From the NCBI GenBank assembly GCA_036562265.1, contig DATCKS010000252.1, positions 1 to 5,346 on the forward strand: DNA of 5,346 nucleotides. The letters are read 5' to 3'. Under the pieces are notes generated by a model. The model searched no databases and was not told the DNA's origin. It was given only the letters and a program-made list of their open reading frames with translations. A program made the translations under genes and the position numbers. Positions 1-5,346 of this stretch are shown in pieces; the stretch's first letter is position 1; every line of letters begins with the position of its first letter. Source of the DNA: DASVDK01 sp036562265 [NCBI: Thermodesulfobacteriota bacterium]. GTDB lineage: Bacteria > DASVDK01.

Positions 1-1089
1 GAGCCCGTAGAGCGTCGGCGCGGCGGCGCCGGCGCCGATGCCGACCGTGTAGAAGAGCCCGTAGGCGCGGGCGCGCCGCGTCGGCACGACGAAGTCGGCC
101 ACCGTCCCGTAGAGGACCGACGACGTCCCGTTGAGCGCCACGCCGAGCACCGGCAGGAGGGCCAGCGCGCCGCCAAGGGGCGAGAGCACCACGCCGAGCA
201 TCAGGGCGGCGGTCGCCGCCTCGGTGAGGACCACCGTCCGGATGATCCCCACCCGCTCGGCCACGGCGCCGCAGACGAACTTCCCCACGGCGCCCCCCGC
301 GAAGACGAGGGCGAGGGCGACGCCGACGGTCTCGACCCCCGACCCCTTGGCGATCAGCACGAACGGCAGCAGCGTGAGGAAGCCGGTCCGGGTGGCGCTG
401 TCGATGCCGTGGACGGCGCTGAGGGCCTGGAAGCCCCAGACGTCCCGGATGCCCCAGCCCACCGGCCGGGCCGGCGCCTCGGCGTCGGCCGCCTCCCGCG
501 GCGGCCGGGCCCCCAGGCCGAGGCGCGCCAGGACCGCGGCGAGGAGGAGCGCCGCGCCGAGCCCGATGGCGCCGTAGGCCGCCACGGCGGTCTGCCAGCC
601 GAGCGCGGCCGAGGCGGCGCCGATCAGGGCCGGCACGGTAACCTTGCCCAGGTCGCCCGAGAAGTTGTAGGTCCCGAGCGCCACCCGCAGCGGGCCTCCC
701 TCGTACGCGCGCGAGGTGAGGGAGGCCGAGAGGGGATGCTGCACGCCCGAGCCGAGGCCGGCGAGCAGGAGGAGGACGAGGAGCGGGAGGTAGCCGCCCG
801 TGGTCGCCGCGACGACGAAGCCGGCGCCGACCACGGCCGTACCGACCGCCAGGAGGCGCGCCTCGCCGATACGCTCGGCCAGGAACCCGGCCGGGATCTG
901 GAACGCCGACATCGCCCCGGAATAGACGCTGCGCAGGAGGCCCGCCTGGGCCAGCGTCAGCGAGAACTCCCGCGTCCAGATCGGCAACAGGACGTAGAGC
1001 AGGTCCGCGAAGCCGTCGTGGAGGAAGTGAACGGTGCTGGTGGTGGCAAGGGTGGCTCGGGCCCTGCGATCGGACACGGGTCGGATCAT
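1..1089 (-). CDS. MFS transporter, fosmidomycin-resistance (Fsr)-like, C-terminus cut off by window edge
   Basis: Inner-membrane major facilitator superfamily protein, probably a proton-coupled exporter of a small molecule. Reading the minus strand from the ATG at 1089-1087 gives 363 open codons to the window edge; roughly the last transmembrane helix is missing. Visible features: a short charged N-terminus; HFLHDGFADLLYVLLP at residues 21-36 leading into helix 1; FSLTLAQAGLL at 42-52; an MFS motif-A-like loop GFLAERIGEARLL at 68-80; GSGVQHPLSAS at 113-123; YNFSGDLGKV at 141-150; a charged Pro/Ala-rich central loop around 192-212; and a second motif-A-like loop (AERVG, 277-281) in the second half. 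The FSLT..Q.GL and GSGV.HP motifs match the Fsr branch as I remember it, so the subfamily call is by recollection. The drug or metabolite exported is unknown. It is transcribed divergently from the phosphate-transporter gene. No clear Shine-Dalgarno precedes the ATG; a GTG at codon 5 (1077-1075) is an alternative start. Confidence 0.85.
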   Translation of the reverse strand, partial: MIRPVSDRRARATLATTSTVHFLHDGFADLLYVLLPIWTREFSLTLAQAGLLRSVYSGAMSAFQIPAGFLAERIGEARLLAVGTAVVGAGFVVAATTGGYLPLLVLLLLAGLGSGVQHPLSASLTSRAYEGGPLRVALGTYNFSGDLGKVTVPALIGAASAALGWQTAVAAYGAIGLGAALLLAAVLARLGLGARPPREAADAEAPARPVGWGIRDVWGFQALSAVHGIDSATRTGFLTLLPFVLIAKGSGVETVGVALALVFAGGAVGKFVCGAVAERVGIIRTVVLTEAATAALMLGVVLSPLGGALALLPVLGVALNGTSSVLYGTVADFVVPTRRARAYGLFYTVGIGAGAAAPTLYGL

Positions 1090-1113
1090 CCCACAGGCTT
1101 GACCGGCGGTCAA
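1085..1113 (-). promoter_or_regulatory. Possible sigma70-type promoter for the MFS gene
   Basis: On the minus strand TTGACC (plus coordinates 1108-1113) stands 17 nt upstream of GATGAT (1085-1090), matching the -35 consensus 5/6 and the -10 consensus 4/6. The -10 overlaps the annotated ATG. If this promoter is real, transcription would start near codon 5, which is GTG, giving a leaderless or nearly leaderless message. The -35 is one half of the palindrome in this gap. Promoter calls from hexamers alone are weak, especially in a non-model organism. Confidence 0.3.
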
Positions 1114-1121
1114 ATTCCTGT
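1093..1121. promoter_or_regulatory. Palindromic candidate operator between divergent genes
   Basis: The core TTGACCGGCGGTCAA at 1099-1113 has perfect 6-bp arms around a 3-bp centre. It is flanked by a second pair of matching arms, ACAGG at 1093-1097 and CCTGT at 1117-1121, offset by 1 and 3 bp. The size and symmetry are typical of sites bound by dimeric repressors such as TetR, MarR or GntR family proteins; no regulator gene is in the window, so the binder is unknown. It begins 4 bp upstream of the MFS ATG and touches the proposed -35 of the rightward promoter, so a bound protein could control both directions. As RNA the same bases would form a hairpin just before the MFS start. Confidence 0.5.
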
Positions 1122-1147
1122 CACATACGGCAAACCGCAGTTAGAAT
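1118..1147 (+). promoter_or_regulatory. Possible promoter for the rightward gene cluster
   Basis: CTGTCA at 1118-1123 (4/6 to the -35 consensus) lies 18 nt from TAGAAT at 1142-1147 (5/6 to the -10 consensus). This is within the most AT-rich stretch of the window (about 1112-1168), which supports promoter function. Transcription would begin near 1154 and give a leader of about 15 nt containing the Shine-Dalgarno of the next gene. The -35 overlaps the right arm of the palindrome. It is inferred from consensus matching only. Confidence 0.4.
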
Positions 1148-1159
1148 TCCGAAAACCCT

Positions 1160-1165
1160 GAGGAA
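1160..1165 (+). promoter_or_regulatory. Ribosome binding site deciding the GTG start at 1169
   Basis: GAGGAA lies 3 nt before GTG 1169-1171. It supports that GTG as the start of the phosphate-transporter gene: it is the only purine-rich anti-16S match nearby, and translation from the GTG gives a hydrophobic N-terminus typical of the family. Confidence 0.6.
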
Positions 1166-1168
1166 ATC

Positions 1169-2803
1169 GTGAGCCCTCTCGCCACCGCCACCCTCCTCGG
1201 CGCCATCGCCCTCCTCCTCTACGGCATCCGCCTGGCCGGCGACGGCATCCAGAAGGCGGCCGGGGGCCGGATCCGGCGGCTGCTCGGCGTGGTGACGAAG
1301 AACCGCCTGGTGGCGTTCGGGGTGGGGGCGGCCGCCGCGGCGCTCCTGCAGTCGTCGTCGGCGACCGTCGCCATGCTCGTCGGCTTCGTCTCGGCCGGGC
1401 TCATGACGCTGCCGCAGACGATCGCGGTGCTCCTCGGCGCGAACGTCGGCACGACGCTCACGCCCCAGCTCGTCGCCTTCCGCGTCTTCGACCTGGCGGT
1501 GCCCATCGCCGGGCTCGGCGTGGCGCTGTCGATGTGGGGCTGGTCGTCGCGCGCGCGCCACGTCGGCCAGGCGGTGCTCGGCTTCGGCTTCGTCTTCCTG
1601 GCGCTCCACCTGGCGACGACGACCATGGCGCCCCTGCGGGACGATCCGTTCTTCACCCTCGTGCTCCAGACCCTCAGGGACCACCCGGGCTGGACGCTGC
1701 TCCTGGCCGCCGGCTTCACGGCGCTCGTCCACTCCTCGGCCGCCACGCTCGTCCTCGCCCTCGGCCTCGCGCACCAGGGGCTCGTCGACCTGGCCGGCGC
1801 GATGCCGATCGTCCTCGGCGCGAACCTCGGCACGACGGCGGCGGCGATCGAGACGGCGGTCGGGGCCAAGCGAGACGCCCAGCAGACGGCGGCCGCGCAC
1901 GTCATCGCGAAGGCCATCGGGCTCGCGGTCGCCTTCCCGCTGATGGAGCCGTTCGCGCGCCTCGTCGCCGCGACGAGCGACGACCTCGCGCGCCAGATCG
2001 CCAACGCGCACACCATCTTCAACGTCGCGCTCGCGATCGGCCTCCTGCCGGTCACGGGGCTCCTCGCCGGCCTCGTGCGCCGTCTGCTGCCGCCGCGGCC
2101 GGCGAGCGAGGAGCCCTTCGGCCCGAAGTACCTCGACGAGCGGGTCCTCGAGTCGCCGCCGGTCGCCTTCGGCCAGGCGGCGCGCGAGGTGCTCCGCATG
2201 GCGGACATCGTGCAGACGATGGTCCGCGAGTCGATTCGCGCCTTCGAGGGGCACGACCTCGACCTGGTGCAGCGGATCGAGGACATGGACGACCAGGTCG
2301 ACCGCCTCGACCGCGAGGTGAAGCTCTTCCTCACCAAGCTCTCGAAGTCGGGGCTCACCGAGGCGCAGGCGGCCCGCGAACTCGAGCTGATCGCGTTCTC
2401 GACCGACCTCGAGGCGGTCGGCGACATCGTCGACAAGAACCTCATGTCGCTCGCGCGCAAGCGGATCAAGCAGGGCGTCACCTTCTCGGCCGAGGGGTGG
2501 CGCGAGATCCGCGACTTCCACGCGAAGGTCTGCGAGAACCTCGAGCTCGCGGTCTCGGCCTTCGCCACGCGCGACGCCGATCTGGCGCGCACGCTCCTGC
2601 GCCACAAGAACCGCCTCGGCGAGATCGAGCGGGCCCTCAACGCCGCGCACGTCGACCGCCTCCACCGCGGCCTGCGCGAGTCGATCGAGACCTCGTCGAT
2701 CCACCTCGACCTCCTCTCGAACCTCGAGCGGATCAACTCCCACGTGACGAACGTGGCCTACACGATCCTCGAGGCGGCGGCCTCGGACGACGGCGACGGC
2801 TAG
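1169..2803 (+). CDS. Na+/phosphate cotransporter family protein with C-terminal PhoU-like domain (YjbB/NptA type)
   Basis: Inner-membrane protein of 544 residues in the Na/Pi cotransporter (SLC34-like, NptA/YjbB) family, expected to move inorganic phosphate; E. coli YjbB has been linked to phosphate export, so the direction here is uncertain. Two inverted-repeat halves each carry the family signature: QSSSAT at 61-66 with GANVGTT at 90-96, and VHSSAAT at 187-193 with GANLGTT at 218-224. HTIFN at 281-285 is also typical. Hydrophobic segments run to about residue 306. The cytoplasmic region from about 335 to 535 is helical and PhoU-like, with DLEAVGDIVDKN at 413-424 and NLERINSHVTNVAY at 518-531 corresponding to the two E..GD/E.I..H metal-binding repeats of PhoU. 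The length matches the usual two-domain architecture. It starts with GTG and ends at TAG 2801-2803, 19 bp before the lyase gene with no visible terminator. Regulation by phosphate is plausible, but no Pho box was recognised. Confidence 0.93.
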   Translation: MSPLATATLLGAIALLLYGIRLAGDGIQKAAGGRIRRLLGVVTKNRLVAFGVGAAAAALLQSSSATVAMLVGFVSAGLMTLPQTIAVLLGANVGTTLTPQLVAFRVFDLAVPIAGLGVALSMWGWSSRARHVGQAVLGFGFVFLALHLATTTMAPLRDDPFFTLVLQTLRDHPGWTLLLAAGFTALVHSSAATLVLALGLAHQGLVDLAGAMPIVLGANLGTTAAAIETAVGAKRDAQQTAAAHVIAKAIGLAVAFPLMEPFARLVAATSDDLARQIANAHTIFNVALAIGLLPVTGLLAGLVRRLLPPRPASEEPFGPKYLDERVLESPPVAFGQAAREVLRMADIVQTMVRESIRAFEGHDLDLVQRIEDMDDQVDRLDREVKLFLTKLSKSGLTEAQAARELELIAFSTDLEAVGDIVDKNLMSLARKRIKQGVTFSAEGWREIRDFHAKVCENLELAVSAFATRDADLARTLLRHKNRLGEIERALNAAHVDRLHRGLRESIETSSIHLDLLSNLERINSHVTNVAYTILEAAASDDGDG

Positions 2804-2822
2804 CGCACGCTAAGATGGGGCA

Positions 2823-3683
2823 ATGGAACCCCGCACCCGACTACGCCGCCGACTGATCGAGGGTCCCATCATCGTCGCCCCGGGCGCCTACGACGCGCTC
2901 GTGGCCCGGCTGATCGAGCAGGCCGGGTTCGAGGCGGTCTACCTCTCCGGAGCCGGCGTGAGCTACACGCGGCTCGGCCGCCCGGACATCGGGCTCCTCT
3001 CGTTCACCGAGATGGTCCAGGTGTGCGAGGCGATGGCCGAGGCGGTCGGCATCCCGATCATCGCCGACGGCGACACCGGGTACGGCAACGCCCTCAACGT
3101 GCAGCGGACCGTGCGCGCCTACGAGCGGGCCGGCGTCGCCGCCATCCAGCTCGAGGACCAGACCTTCCCGAAGCGCTGCGGCCATCTCTCCGGCAAGGCG
3201 GTGACGTCGGCCGACGAGATGGTCGGCAAGATCAAGGCCGCCTGCGACGCGCGGCGCGACCCGGACTTCCTCGTCGTCGCCCGCACCGACGCCCGCGCCA
3301 CGCACGGGATGGACGAGGCGCTCGACCGGGCCCGCCGCTACGCGGAGGCCGGCGCGGACGTCCTCTTCGTCGAGGCGCCCGAGAGCGTCGAGGAACTGCG
3401 TGCGGTGCCGCCGGCGCTGCCGCGGCCCTGTCTCGCCAACATGGTGGAGCGGGGGCGGACGCCGCTCGTCCGGGCCGCCGATCTCGACGCCATGGGCTAC
3501 CGCATCGTCATCTTCCCCAACGCCGTCACCCGGTTCATCGCCCGCCAGGCGGCGGGTTTCCTTGCGCGCCTCGCAGCCGAGGGGGGGACGGCGGGGCTCC
3601 TCGACGAGATGATCGGGTTCGAGGACTTCAATCGTCTCCTCGGCCTCGCCGATGTGCGAGCGGCCGAGGAGCGTTACCGGTAA
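2823..3683 (+). CDS. Isocitrate lyase/PEP mutase superfamily C-C lyase (2-hydroxydicarboxylate lyase type)
   Basis: Cytoplasmic TIM-barrel enzyme of 286 residues, the usual length for methylisocitrate lyase (PrpB), 2,3-dimethylmalate lyase and relatives. These cleave a 2-hydroxy acid retro-aldol fashion with Mg2+, giving pyruvate or glyoxylate plus a carboxylic acid. Visible features: [13 protein letters not shown] near 18-30; LSGAGVS at 41-47; metal-site motif DGDTGYGN at 82-89 (D82, D84); QLEDQ at 109-113 (E111, D112); gating-loop signature PKRCGH at 116-121 with the catalytic Cys at 119; ARTDA at 153-157; FVEAPES at 182-188 (E184); and NMVERGRTP at 206-214. The KRCGH loop argues for a lyase and against PEP mutase, which has a different loop after EDK. 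Databases often label such proteins carboxyvinyl-carboxyphosphonate phosphorylmutase or oxaloacetate decarboxylase, so the exact substrate is unassigned. The ATG at 2823 has only a weak GGGG-type ribosome site (2817-2820), but the N-terminus fits the family. Confidence 0.88.
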
Positions 3684-3694
3684 CGATCGCACGC

Positions 3695-3699
3695 GGAGG
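3695..3699 (+). promoter_or_regulatory. Ribosome binding site for the substrate-binding protein
   Basis: GGAGG lies 4 nt before ATG 3704 and 10 nt before a second in-frame ATG at 3710. It fixes the start to this pair. The same frame is open upstream to about 3023, but that part lies over the lyase gene and is a shadow. The choice between the two ATGs changes the protein by only two residues. Confidence 0.75.
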
Positions 3700-3703
3700 T
3701 GTC

Positions 3704-4750
3704 ATGTCGATGCTCACCCGCCGTCACACGCTGGCTGCGCTCGGGGCCGCCGGCGCCGCCTCGCTCCTCCCGGGCTTCGCGCGCCGCGCCCGCGCGCAGG
3801 GCACCCGCAAGGTCGTTCTCACCCAGTCCACCGACGGGTTCCTCTACGTGCCGATCCAGGTGGCGCGTGCCCGGCGCTACTTCGAGGCGGAGGGGATCGA
3901 GCCGGAGGTCGTCGTCACCGGCGGCGGGTCGAAGGCGATCGCGGCCGTCGTGGGCGGCAGCGCCCACGTCTACGTCGGCAACGCCGCCTCGCAGGTGAAC
4001 GCGCTGTCGAAGGGCCAGCCGCTCCTCAGCTTCGCGGCGGTCATGACCCAGTTCGCGAGCAACCTCGTCATGCAGGGCGACCTGGCGCGCGAGCGCGGCA
4101 TCGGCGCGGCAAGCTCCGTGGCGGACAAGGTCGCGGCGCTCAAGGGCCTCAAGGTCGGCATCACGGCGCCGGGGAGCGCCACCGACCAGATCCTCCGCTA
4201 CCTGCTCCAGAAGCAGGGGATCCAGCCCGACCGCGACGTCACCGTCATCCCGGTCGGCGGCAGCGGGCCGATGATCGCCGCCTTCTCGCAGAAGCGGATC
4301 GACGCGTTCGTCCTCTCCTCGCCGACGGCCGAGACGGCCGTCGTCAAGCACGGCGGCGTCATGCTCATCAACTTCTCCCGCGGCGAGTACGAGCCGCTCG
4401 CCGGCATCCTCTACATGAGCCTGATCGCCAAGAAGGACTGGCTCGAGCAGAACGGCGAGACCGCCGTGGCGGTCTGCCGGGCCCTCGCCAGGGCCGAGCG
4501 GCTCATCAACGAGAAGCCGCAGGAGGCCAAGGCGGCCATCGGCAGCTTCTACGAGAAGACCGAGCCGGCCGTCTTCGACCAGGCGTGGGAGAGCAACGTC
4601 AAGGCGTACCCGCCGACGCCGGTCATCGCCGCCGCGGCCATGCAGAAGGCGATCGACTTCATGAACGCCACCGAGGAGGAGAAGACCAGCGTGACGGTCG
4701 CGCAGGCGATGGACAACCGCTACGCCGAGGCGGCGGTCAGGGGGTTGTAG
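3704..4750 (+). CDS. ABC transporter substrate-binding protein, NMT1/SsuA/TauA-like, Tat signal
   Basis: Periplasmic solute-binding protein of 348 residues for an ABC importer of the nitrate/sulfonate/pyrimidine-precursor (NMT1/THI5-like) type. The N-terminus has a twin-arginine motif TRRHTLA at residues 5-11, a hydrophobic Ala/Leu/Gly stretch at about 9-25, a basic c-region (ARRARA) and a likely signal peptidase site after A31. The mature protein opens with a beta strand KVVLTQS, then [20 protein letters not shown] (45-64), the usual first lobe. [26 protein letters not shown] (82-107) is the family ligand-site region, and [23 protein letters not shown] (147-168) starts the second lobe. The ligand cannot be told from sequence. 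It sits 20 bp after the lyase gene and 8 bp before the LeuC-like gene, so its ligand is probably a substrate or precursor for those enzymes. No permease or ATPase gene is in the window. Confidence 0.9.
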
Positions 4751-4754
4751 GAGG
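4749..4754 (+). promoter_or_regulatory. Ribosome binding site overlapping the stop codon of the upstream gene
   Basis: AGGAGG overlaps the TAG stop (4748-4750) of the binding-protein gene and lies 4 nt before ATG 4759. A ribosome ending translation upstream covers this site, which suggests translational coupling of the binding protein and the LeuC-like enzyme. Confidence 0.7.
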
Positions 4755-4758
4755 AGGC

Positions 4759-5346
4759 ATGGCGCCTCGGACGCTCTTCGAGAAGGTCTGGGCGCGGCAC
4801 GTCGTCGCCGAGGGTCCCGGCGGGCAGACGCTCCTCTACATCGACCGCCTCCTGATCCACGAGGGCGGCTTCCACGCCTTCGAGACGCTCAGGCAGTCGG
4901 GGCGGCGCGTGCGCCGCCCCGACGCGGTCTTCGCGACGCCGGACCACTACGTCCCCACGGTGGGACGCGCGGCCGGCATCGCCGACCCCGAGGCCCGCAT
5001 GCGGGTCGAGAGCCTGCGCGCCGACACGCGGGCGGCCGGCATCACCCTCTTCGACCTCGACGATCCGCGCCAGGGGATCGTCCACGTGATCGGCCCCGAG
5101 CAGGGGATCACCCAGCCGGGCCTCACCATCGTCTGCGGCGACTCGCACACCTCGACGCACGGCGCCTTCGGCGCCCTGGCCTTCGGCATCGGCGCCTCTG
5201 AGGTCGCCCACGTGCTCGCCACGCAGACGCTCTGGCAGCGCAAGCCGAAGGCGATGCGCATCCGCGTGGAGGGGGAGCGGCCCCCGGGCGTCACGGCCAA
5301 GGACGTGATCCTCGGCATCATCGCCGCGATCGGCGCGGGCGGGGGA
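4759..5346 (+). CDS. LeuC-like 3-isopropylmalate dehydratase/aconitase-family large subunit, 3' end beyond window
   Basis: The N-terminal 196 residues of a protein expected to be about 420-470 long. LeuC with LeuD isomerises 2-isopropylmalate to 3-isopropylmalate by dehydration and rehydration, using a [4Fe-4S] cluster in the cytoplasm. Visible motifs: [12 protein letters not shown] (5-16), [11 protein letters not shown] (25-35), VRRPD (51-55), DHYVPT (62-67), [16 protein letters not shown] (106-121), [20 protein letters not shown] (126-145), [10 protein letters not shown] (151-160), and [12 protein letters not shown] (177-188). The three cluster cysteines lie later in the family and are outside the window. 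Two points differ from textbook LeuC: DHYVPT instead of the common DHNVPT, and GGFHAF replacing the usual VTSPQAF after LIHE, one residue shorter. With its neighbours, a lyase and a solute-binding protein, this suggests a catabolic paralogue rather than the leucine-pathway enzyme, but a biosynthetic role is not excluded. The start is supported by a strong ribosome site. Confidence 0.88.
4896..4923. repeat. Perfect 13-bp inverted repeat with 2-bp centre inside the LeuC-like gene
   Basis: Arms at 4896-4908 and 4911-4923 are exact reverse complements, around a GT centre, almost all G/C. The arms encode S-G-R-R-V-R-R-P-D of the LeuC-like protein. The Arg-rich, family-conserved VRRPD sequence plus C/G-ending codons explains much of the symmetry. 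In mRNA it could form a very stable hairpin (about 12 bp with a 4-nt loop) some 140 nt into the gene. It is not followed by a T-run, so it does not look like an intrinsic terminator. Confidence 0.6.

What the first reader, a model, noticed from the sequence alone, without database searches (positions are those of the whole stretch)
2823..5346. Lyase + binding protein + LeuC-like hydratase: possible uptake-and-cleavage module for a substituted malate
Seen: three tightly spaced co-directional genes (20 and 8 bp gaps, the last with its ribosome site overlapping the upstream stop). They encode an ICL/PrpB-type lyase with KRCGH, an NMT1-type binding protein and a LeuC-like large subunit. Known: aconitase-family isomerases paired with this lyase superfamily occur in the glyoxylate shunt, the methylcitrate cycle, and nicotinate fermentation (dimethylmaleate hydratase then 2,3-dimethylmalate lyase, giving propionate and pyruvate). 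Inferred: the operon imports an acid, the LeuC-like enzyme moves its hydroxyl, and the lyase splits it. If the intermediate were 3-isopropylmalate itself, cleavage by analogy with isocitrate lyase would give glyoxylate and isovalerate, a reaction I do not know to be described. The ligand and substrate are unknown.
Basis: partly seen in the sequence, partly recalled or inferred. Interest (0 to 1): 0.6.

Follow-up and report, generated by a model that had tools for sequence, protein, structure and literature searches.

The report
Misnamed hydratase-lyase catabolic gene module
Three neighbouring bacterial genes encode a carbon-carbon bond-cutting enzyme, a nutrient-binding protein and part of a water-adding enzyme usually labelled as leucine synthesis, and relatives suggest they belong to a widespread breakdown pathway for an unidentified substituted malate-type acid.

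Summary
In detail: an ICL/PEP-mutase-type lyase (2823-3683), an NMT1-type binding protein (3704-4750) and the first 196 residues of a LeuC-like subunit (4759-5346, cut by the window end) lie on one strand with 20 and 8 bp gaps. The partnership is real: lyase relatives have a LeuC-family gene within 6.5 kb in 37 of 80 loci. With LeuC as bait, loci of its paralogous type carry a lyase in 6 of 12 cases, leucine-type loci in 0 of 18. With the binding protein as bait, the two closest relatives sit in importer operons with a lyase or LeuC-LeuD. The window's LeuC groups with the paralogs (100/99), though a leucine placement is not formally rejected. The exact order lyase-SBP-LeuC was not seen elsewhere. 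Best reading: uptake protein, hydratase and 2-R-malate lyase, working like dimethylmaleate hydratase/dimethylmalate lyase on an unknown substrate. Related clusters often add ring-amide hydrolases (HyuAB or PuuE-like) and an isochorismatase-type amidase, pointing to cyclic amides or imides as precursors. Cleavage of 3-isopropylmalate itself is not supported.

The parts
2823..3683 (+). ICL/PEP-mutase-superfamily lyase of the petal-death-protein / 2,3-dimethylmalate lyase / methylisocitrate lyase group (286 aa)
   Evidence: Pfam PEP_mutase 1.1e-48; TIGR02317 prpB 302 bits, below its cut-off of 354.4; best solved relative petal death protein 1zlp, 1.4e-64; AlphaFold model pLDDT 91, best VIA-align Z 38.5 to 1zlp
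3704..4750 (+). NMT1/THI5-type solute-binding protein of an ABC importer (348 aa), with an N-terminal [10 protein letters not shown] twin-arginine-like export signal (motif judged by eye)
   Evidence: Pfam NMT1_2 1.4e-24, NMT1 2.5e-21; closest solved sequence 3qsl, 1e-28
4759..5346 (+). N-terminal 196 residues of a LeuC-like hydratase large subunit that groups with the HxGS-type paralogs linked to catabolic clusters; gene cut by the window end
   Evidence: Pfam Aconitase 2.5e-57; tree placement with 16 and then 24 HxGS-type paralogs, 98/99 and 100/99
4749..4754 (+). ribosome-binding site AGGAGG of the LeuC-like gene, overlapping the SBP stop codon
   Evidence: sequence
1169..2803 (+). Na/Pi-cotransporter with PhoU domain, 19 bp upstream of the lyase; possibly the first gene of the transcript, not shown to belong to the module
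   Evidence: Pfam Na_Pi_cotrans 9e-55 and PhoU 2.5e-23; gap; no match at E 1e-10 among the predicted proteins of the 189 loci held

Best explanation
The window holds the start of a catabolic operon. The SBP captures a precursor for uptake (inferred). The LeuC-like protein, with a LeuD partner expected just past the window, forms an Fe-S hydratase of the aconitase superfamily that adds water to a 2,3-substituted maleate (or moves the hydroxyl of a substituted malate). The lyase then splits the resulting 2-R-malate between C2 and C3 into a 2-oxo acid and a carboxylic acid. It works like dimethylmaleate hydratase plus 2,3-dimethylmalate lyase of nicotinate fermentation (that pathway is recalled, not read here), with a different hydratase subfamily and an unknown substrate. 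Shown: gene families, catalytic motif residues, predicted fold of the lyase, best-tree place of the LeuC, repeated partnership in relatives. Inferred: reaction direction, substrate, role of the SBP. In relatives the module is often joined by ring-amide hydrolases and an isochorismatase-type amidase, so the substrate may arise from a cyclic amide or imide; this is inferred for the window, which shows no such gene.
For: Lyase as bait: of 80 loci, LeuC-family within 6.5 kb in 37, LeuD in 35. By the density seen in six genomes (21 matches in about 25.7 Mb) about 0.9 of 80 would be expected. Many loci are near-copies (Caulobacteraceae), but the LeuC-linked set also includes Clostridia, Treponema, Synergistetes, Desulfobacterales, a gammaproteobacterium and Chloroflexi by record title. 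LeuC as bait: 30 loci returned from 385 genomes, all 30 read with flanks: the 12 of HxGS type have a lyase in the stretch in 6 (within 5 kb in 5), the 18 leucine-type in 0, while leuB is seen in 1 of 12 and 14 of 18 (Fisher for 5/12 against 0/18 p=0.0056). Modules: L162 and L164 (close relatives of each other) = NMT1 SBP-ATPase-two permeases-GntR-lyase-LeuC-LeuD; L168 = lyase-LeuC-LeuD; L161 = peptide-type ABC-lyase-LeuC-LeuD. SBP as bait: 5 hits in 4 of 385 genomes; the two closest are L113 (38%: ATPase-permease-SBP-lyase, with HxGS-type LeuC-LeuD 9-10 kb further on, opposite strand, L211) and L205 (40%: LeuC-LeuD-ATPase-permease-SBP). Named plasmids: 7 of 11 annotated contexts read have leuC and leuD with the lyase, all 7 LeuC with EGSxHAF. 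Lyase tree: window is sister (SH-aLRT 85) to a clade (99) of 33, 26 of them with LeuC within 6.5 kb.
Against: No locus with the exact order lyase-SBP-LeuC was seen. The SBP is the least conserved partner: an NMT1 SBP lies within 6.5 kb of the lyase in only 2 of 80 loci, and 3 of the 5 SBP hits have neither lyase nor LeuC in the stretch (L114, L206, L207). 37 of 80 lyase loci have neither LeuC nor HyuB/PuuE near. 6 of 12 HxGS-type LeuC loci lack a lyase in the stretch, and one of these (L163) has a leuB-like gene. Forcing the window LeuC into the leucine clade is not rejected (p-AU 0.078), and its nearest rows by path length in that tree are leucine-type. For the fragment, PRK05478 outscores PRK12466 (278 against 270 bits), whereas the three full-length paralogs tested score the other way. 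A leucine-type LeuC-LeuD also stands beside a lyase in L116. LeuD is unseen. No activity is known.
Confidence: 0.62

Rival explanations
1. Leucine biosynthesis: the LeuC-like gene is the organism's isopropylmalate isomerase, and its position next to a lyase is chance.
For: Best NCBIfam score for the fragment is PRK05478, 3-isopropylmalate dehydratase large subunit (278 bits); highest pairwise identity is to leucine-type L134 (68-69%); forcing the window into the leucine clade is not rejected (p-AU 0.078); leucine-type LeuC beside a lyase occurs in L116.
Against: Motif [14 protein letters not shown] as in paralogs, not HEVTSPQAF/DHNVPT; best trees put it with paralogs, 98/99 and 100/99; 0 of 18 leucine-type loci have a lyase, 14 of 18 have leuB.
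Confidence: 0.12
2. Methylcitrate-cycle module: the lyase is PrpB and the LeuC-like protein stands in for 2-methylisocitrate dehydratase.
For: prpB is the best NCBIfam hit (302 bits); Arg237 aligns with an Arg of methylisocitrate lyases 3eoo and 9hra; PrpB structures tie with PDP in fold (Z 38.1).
Against: Score below the prpB cut-off of 354.4; residues VEAP and NMVE instead of the PEAL and NMTE of rows L062, L064, L073 and L076, which lie in another part of the lyase tree, with MmgE/PrpD near each; no prpC or prpD in the window.
Confidence: 0.12
3. The three genes are a chance neighbourhood: an oxaloacetate decarboxylase or other superfamily member, an orphan SBP and a paralogous LeuC with separate roles.
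For: No exact order conserved; SBP rarely near lyase (2 of 80); relatives are annotated 'oxaloacetate decarboxylase' in two plasmids.
Against: Each of the three genes, searched alone, brings back one of the other families beside it; overlap of stop and ribosome site; PA4872 decarboxylase is a clearly poorer fold match (Z 31.6, 252 aligned) than PDP (Z 38.5, 283 aligned).
Confidence: 0.14

Closest known systems
2,3-dimethylmaleate hydratase (DmdAB) and 2,3-dimethylmalate lyase (Dml) of nicotinate fermentation (pathway recalled; clusters of that look are L001, L002, L004, L009, L020)
   Same: An aconitase-family two-subunit hydratase near an ICL/PEP-mutase lyase; window lyase 48-53% identical to the lyases of these clusters
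   Different: There the large subunit is HacA-type (30-35% identical to the window LeuC over 139-195 residues) and the neighbours include a B12 mutase-like and a PrpF-like gene; the window has a LeuC-type large subunit and an NMT1 SBP; Arg237 of the window lyase is Tyr there
Petal death protein (1zlp) and fungal oxaloacetate hydrolase / DML
   Same: Best sequence and structure match is 1zlp (1.4e-64; Z 38.5, 41% identity over 283 residues)
   Different: Eukaryotic enzymes; PDP has Tyr and DML Gly where the window has Arg237
Methylisocitrate lyase PrpB
   Same: Fold, KRCGH, Arg237 column
   Different: Below equivalog cut-off; no methylcitrate genes in view
LeuC of leucine biosynthesis (TIGR00170)
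   Same: Family and about 58-69% identity over the first 196 residues
   Different: Groups with paralogs that have H[ED]GS..[AG][FY] and often DHYVPT, linked to lyase or HyuAB clusters rather than leuB
Alphaproteobacterial cluster GntR-ABC-(MmgE)-lyase-HyuB-HyuA-cysteine hydrolase-FAD oxidoreductase plus leuC-leuD (Azospirillum ramasamyi, A. oryzae, Neorhizobium petrolearium, Roseomonas haemaphysalidis)
   Same: Lyase 54-55% and LeuC 63-65% identical to the window's; same three roles (importer, hydratase, lyase)
   Different: Branched-chain-type ABC importer instead of NMT1 SBP; ring-amide hydrolase and amidase genes that the window does not show; leuC-leuD at the end of the run in Azospirillum, before it in Neorhizobium, divergent in Roseomonas

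Membership tests
ICL/PEP mutase superfamily, 2-R-malate lyase group | KxCGH loop with catalytic Cys | tested here: met
   Lys117-Arg-Cys119-Gly-His121; K117, C119, G120, H121 invariant in the 15 aligned sequences
ICL/PEP mutase superfamily, 2-R-malate lyase group | Metal-site acids (DxD and the Glu of xEDQ) | tested here: met
   D82, D84, E111 invariant in the 15 aligned sequences; their role is recalled
ICL/PEP mutase superfamily, 2-R-malate lyase group | Fold | tested here: met
   Model pLDDT 91; Z 38.5, 38.2, 38.1, 37.2 to PDP, OAH, PrpB, DML; rows within 1 are tied
Methylisocitrate lyase PrpB (TIGR02317) | Score at or above the equivalog cut-off | tested here: not met
   302 against 354.4 bits
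Methylisocitrate lyase PrpB (TIGR02317) | prpC/prpD neighbours | tested here: inconclusive
   None in 5346 bases; downstream not readable
2,3-dimethylmalate lyase / PDP | Cleavage of 2,3-dimethylmalate or related 2-alkylmalates | not testable with these tools
   needs an assay
Oxaloacetate decarboxylase (PA4872 type) | Closest fold and sequence to PA4872 | tested here: inconclusive
   Listed, but at Z 31.6 against 38.5 for PDP; 4.1e-33 against 1.4e-64 by sequence
LeuC of leucine biosynthesis | HEVTSPQAFEGLR / DHNVPT segments of leucine-type LeuC | tested here: not met
   Window has [12 protein letters not shown] / DHYVPT (sequence; comparison)
LeuC of leucine biosynthesis | Placement inside the leucine-type clade | tested here: inconclusive
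   Best tree puts it with 24 HxGS-type rows (100/99); the forced alternative has p-AU 0.078
LeuC of leucine biosynthesis | TIGR00170 full-length score of 560 bits | tested here: inconclusive
   265 bits for a 196-residue fragment; three full-length paralogs pass it (664-680 bits) although two of them (L161, L162) directly adjoin a lyase and the third (L190) lies 6 kb from one
DmdAB dimethylmaleate hydratase | HacA-type large subunit | tested here: not met
   Window LeuC scores best with the LeuC-type models PRK05478, PRK12466, TIGR00170 (265-278 bits); hacA_fam 124 bits
DmdAB dimethylmaleate hydratase | LeuD-like small subunit adjacent | not testable with these tools
   window ends inside LeuC; present in relatives
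NMT1-type ABC importer | NMT1 binding-protein domain | tested here: met
   Pfam NMT1_2 and NMT1 above gathering scores
NMT1-type ABC importer | Permease and ATPase genes | not testable with these tools
   none in the window; present beside related SBPs in L113, L205, L206, L207, L162, L164

The most novel reading that the evidence does not exclude
The module is part of an undescribed, widespread pathway for cyclic imides or amides: importer, ring-amide hydrolase (HyuAB in some clusters, a PuuE-like enzyme in others), isochorismatase-type half-amidase, LeuCD-type hydratase, 2-R-malate lyase. The most exciting substrates would be substituted maleimides from haem and chlorophyll decay, such as methylethylmaleimide and haematinic acid. 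Opened, they would be alkyl-maleates or a methyl-homoaconitate-like tricarboxylate, and the retained Arg237 could hold the third carboxylate. The lyase would then give a 2-oxo acid plus propionate, butyrate or glutarate. That would supply a microbial end-route for tetrapyrrole carbon. All of this is inference from gene families and chemistry.
Probability: 0.1. Interest if true: 0.85.

Novelty: new variant of a known kind. Interest (0 to 1): 0.52.

Why it matters
LeuC paralogs of this type pass the curated leucine-biosynthesis model (TIGR00170; 3 of 3 full-length ones tested) and are annotated as leuC/leuD with a leucine GO term in six plasmids, yet their neighbours point to catabolism with a C-C lyase. 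This suggests that many genomes carry a misnamed degradation pathway. It is testable with a handful of assays, could explain lyases that stand beside NMT1, TctC or branched-chain-type importers, and may show how bacteria finish off N-heterocycle or imide carbon.

Tried and rejected
Plasmids hold no LeuC match at E 1e-60, a limit too strict for a 196-residue query; LeuC homologs beside lyases were then read from the lyase hits.

Placing the organism: the Na/Pi gene's best match in 30 genomes was 47% identical, in the genome reached through L063, a Chloroflexi-titled record. A search of 400 genomes of that phylum gave lyases of at most 61% identity. The source organism stays unknown.

SBP ligand: the SBP model is poor (pLDDT 63). 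Its fold matches bind pyrimidines, sulfonates, nitrate, bicarbonate or PQQ and do not narrow the ligand.

Exact gene order as a test: not found, so I tested partnership instead. The first SBP search (142 genomes, E 1e-50) was widened to 385 (E 1e-45). A search of a 29-genome class at E 1e-60 gave nothing and, lacking a positive control, shows nothing.

Literature (library of open-licence PMC papers only): the listings showed no paper that describes this module; several of those lists were capped or off-topic. Of papers I saw listings and starts of abstracts, and passages of PMC8471276, PMC7609661 and PMC7318184; none was read whole. The nicotinate-fermentation paper, tried by a DOI from memory, is not held. 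PDP kinetics, the role of E. coli PrpB Arg241 and the nicotinate pathway are recalled.

A draft idea that the L061/L071 LeuC and the window LeuC are one group was dropped: they fall in different parts of the tree.
Full report
What is there. Pfam gives PEP_mutase, NMT1 and Aconitase domains. All three frames have strong coding periodicity. A Na/Pi cotransporter-PhoU gene lies 19 bp upstream on the same strand, and the three promoter-like sites found from 1000 to 5346 lie before it. The LeuC reading frame is cut after 196 codons.

The lyase. NCBIfam puts prpB first, at 302 bits against a cut-off of 354.4, so it is not called a methylisocitrate lyase. The best solved relative is the carnation petal death protein (the plant is recalled). 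The model (pLDDT 91) fits PDP, oxaloacetate hydrolase, PrpB and dimethylmalate lyase about equally well (Z 37.2-38.5) and the PA4872 oxaloacetate decarboxylase less well (Z 31.6). Cys119 and the acids D82, D84 and E111 are invariant among the 15 aligned sequences. Arg237 aligns with an Arg of methylisocitrate lyases 3eoo and 9hra. It is kept in the alphaproteobacterial lyases with a HacA-type LeuC (for example L005, L007, L010-L012, L014-L019), but is Tyr in PDP and in the five nicotinate-type clusters, Gly in the solved DML and Leu in L061 and L071. From memory this Arg binds a substrate carboxylate in PrpB, which would hint at an extra acidic or polar substituent; this is inference.

Partnership, lyase as bait. 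The genome scan kept the best 80 loci (46-59% identity). A LeuC-family gene lies within 6.5 kb in 37 of 80, LeuD in 35, both in 35; HyuB in 12, PuuE-like in 19 (31 have one or the other, 25 of these with LeuC); isochorismatase in 29; NMT1 SBP in 2. Against a density of 21 LeuC-family matches in about 25.7 Mb of six genomes, about 0.9 of 80 would be expected by chance. The set is redundant (many Caulobacteraceae) but spans several phyla. 37 of 80 loci have neither LeuC nor HyuB/PuuE near. The window lyase is sister, with moderate support (SH-aLRT 85), to a clade of 33 (99) of which 26 have LeuC within 6.5 kb.

Partnership, LeuC as bait. In 385 genomes, 79 had a match at E 1e-74, and the 30 best places were returned as loci. 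All 30 were read with flanks (up to about 10 kb a side, shorter where contigs end). Twelve carry the motif H[ED]GS..[AG][FY] (the window has HEGGFHAF), eighteen HEVTSPQAF. A lyase is in the stretch in 6 of 12 and 0 of 18; HyuAB in 3 of 12 and 0 of 18; leuB in 1 of 12 and 14 of 18. Among the 18, L178 is only 3.3 kb long and my gene caller labelled nothing in L177. Fisher's test for 5/12 within 5 kb against 0/18 gives p=0.0056. Eight further leucine-type loci read for other reasons (L120, L123-L126, L208-L210) show no lyase either. L162 and L164, close relatives of each other, hold NMT1 SBP-ATPase-two permeases-GntR-lyase-LeuC-LeuD in one run; L168 holds lyase-LeuC-LeuD; L161 a peptide-type ABC with lyase-LeuC-LeuD; L169 a TctABC-like importer, LeuC-LeuD and lyase. 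The window LeuC groups with the HxGS-type rows (98/99 with 16, 100/99 with 24), but stands near their base: its nearest rows by path length in the second tree, and its highest identity (68%), are leucine-type, and forcing it into the leucine clade is not formally rejected (p-AU 0.078). In L116 a leucine-type LeuC-LeuD stands beside a lyase, so the motif is not an absolute rule.

Partnership, SBP as bait. Five hits in 4 of 385 genomes at E 1e-45 (the tool scored at most 5 candidates a genome). L113 (38%): ATPase-permease-SBP-lyase, with HxGS-type LeuC-LeuD 9-10 kb further on, on the other strand (L211). L205 (40%): HacA-type LeuC-LeuD-ATPase-permease-SBP. L114 (34%): ABC genes with MmgE/PrpD, isochorismatase and an amidohydrolase-like gene near. 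L206 (33%): beside an HpcH/HpaI-aldolase-like gene (by eye). L207 (32%): with an amidase. So each of the three window genes leads independently to partners of the same kinds, although the exact order was never seen and the last three SBP hits show neither lyase nor LeuC.

Named organisms. Of 114 plasmid records with a lyase match, 12 of the 30 listed have an annotated lyase; I read 11 of these contexts. Seven have leuC and leuD in the stretch: Azospirillum ramasamyi, A. oryzae, Neorhizobium petrolearium, Roseomonas haemaphysalidis, Sulfitobacter sp. S190, S. pontiacus, Variovorax sp. RA8. Four do not: Tistrella mobilis, Roseomonas mucosa, Roseivivax marinus and a Comamonadaceae isolate. All seven LeuC proteins carry EGSxHAF. 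The arrangement shared by the first four is GntR-branched-chain-type ABC-(MmgE/PrpD in two of the four)-lyase-HyuB-HyuA-cysteine hydrolase-FAD oxidoreductase, with leuC-leuD after it, before it or divergent. In Sulfitobacter S190 the cluster stands beside molybdopterin oxidoreductase and 6-hydroxynicotinate reductase genes.

How it most likely works. The hydratase makes or rearranges a substituted malate and the lyase cleaves it, as in the dimethylmaleate/dimethylmalate pair of nicotinate fermentation (recalled); the SBP belongs to uptake of a precursor. In relatives, HyuAB (Pfam Hydantoinase_A/B) or a PuuE-allantoinase-like enzyme and an isochorismatase-fold amidase near RutB and biuret hydrolase suggest that the acid is released from a cyclic amide or imide. 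Three different large-subunit types (HacA-type, HxGS-type, the L061/L071 type) stand beside lyases of this group, as if the same chemistry had been assembled several times; this is inference. Natural sources of substituted maleimides exist: passages of PMC7318184 report haematinic acid in leaves, cite earlier finds of maleimides and haematinic acid in senescent leaves and lake sediments (maleimides were not detected in that study), and call the further fate of chlorophyll products open. That link is a hypothesis.

Limits. The organism is unknown, LeuC is a fragment, LeuD and the permease are unseen, substrate specificity is untested, and the literature library covers open-licence papers only. 

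Noticed in passing
window 1118-1147 and 1169-2803: Promoter-like sites in the gap between a divergent MFS transporter gene and the Na/Pi-PhoU gene, which runs with a 19 bp gap into the lyase; the transcript may start there.
   Followed up: partly
L162, L161, L190 (full-length paralogs): NCBIfam model TIGR00170 (leuC) accepts these paralogs (664-680 bits, cut-off 560); PRK12466 scores higher than PRK05478 and TIGR00170 for these three and lower for leucine-type L120, so it may separate them. The window fragment itself scores slightly higher with PRK05478.
   Followed up: partly
L194/L196 (Sulfitobacter sp. S190 plasmid): The lyase-HyuAB-isochorismatase-leuCD cluster stands next to molybdopterin oxidoreductase, 6-hydroxynicotinate reductase, UPF0280 and two 'amino acid synthesis family' genes, hinting at N-heterocycle breakdown.
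   Followed up: partly
L199 (Variovorax sp. RA8 plasmid 2): Isochorismatase-lyase-leuC-leuD between LLM flavin oxidoreductase and RibBA/flavin reductase/TctC/GntR genes; may be a flavin-dependent pathway feeding the same module.
   Followed up: no
L010, L015-L019, L021-L024, L026, L028, L030, L031, L035, L036: HacA-type LeuC-LeuD-lyase followed by two PuuE-like genes in Caulobacteraceae records, with MmgE/PrpD and amidase nearby in seven of the Caulobacter loci; a tractable laboratory genus for testing.
   Followed up: partly
L061 and L071: A third LeuC type (HL[LV]QEVSSPQAF, long branch of 1.21 inside the leucine-type part of the tree) placed directly after HyuA-HyuB-isochorismatase-lyase; LeuD follows in L071, the contig ends in L061.
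   Followed up: partly
L037: Two different lyases flank one LeuC-LeuD pair.
   Followed up: no
L170 and L171: HxGS-type LeuC-LeuD with GntR-HyuB-HyuA-isochorismatase, acyl-CoA dehydrogenase-like and CaiB-like genes but no lyase in the stretch.
   Followed up: no
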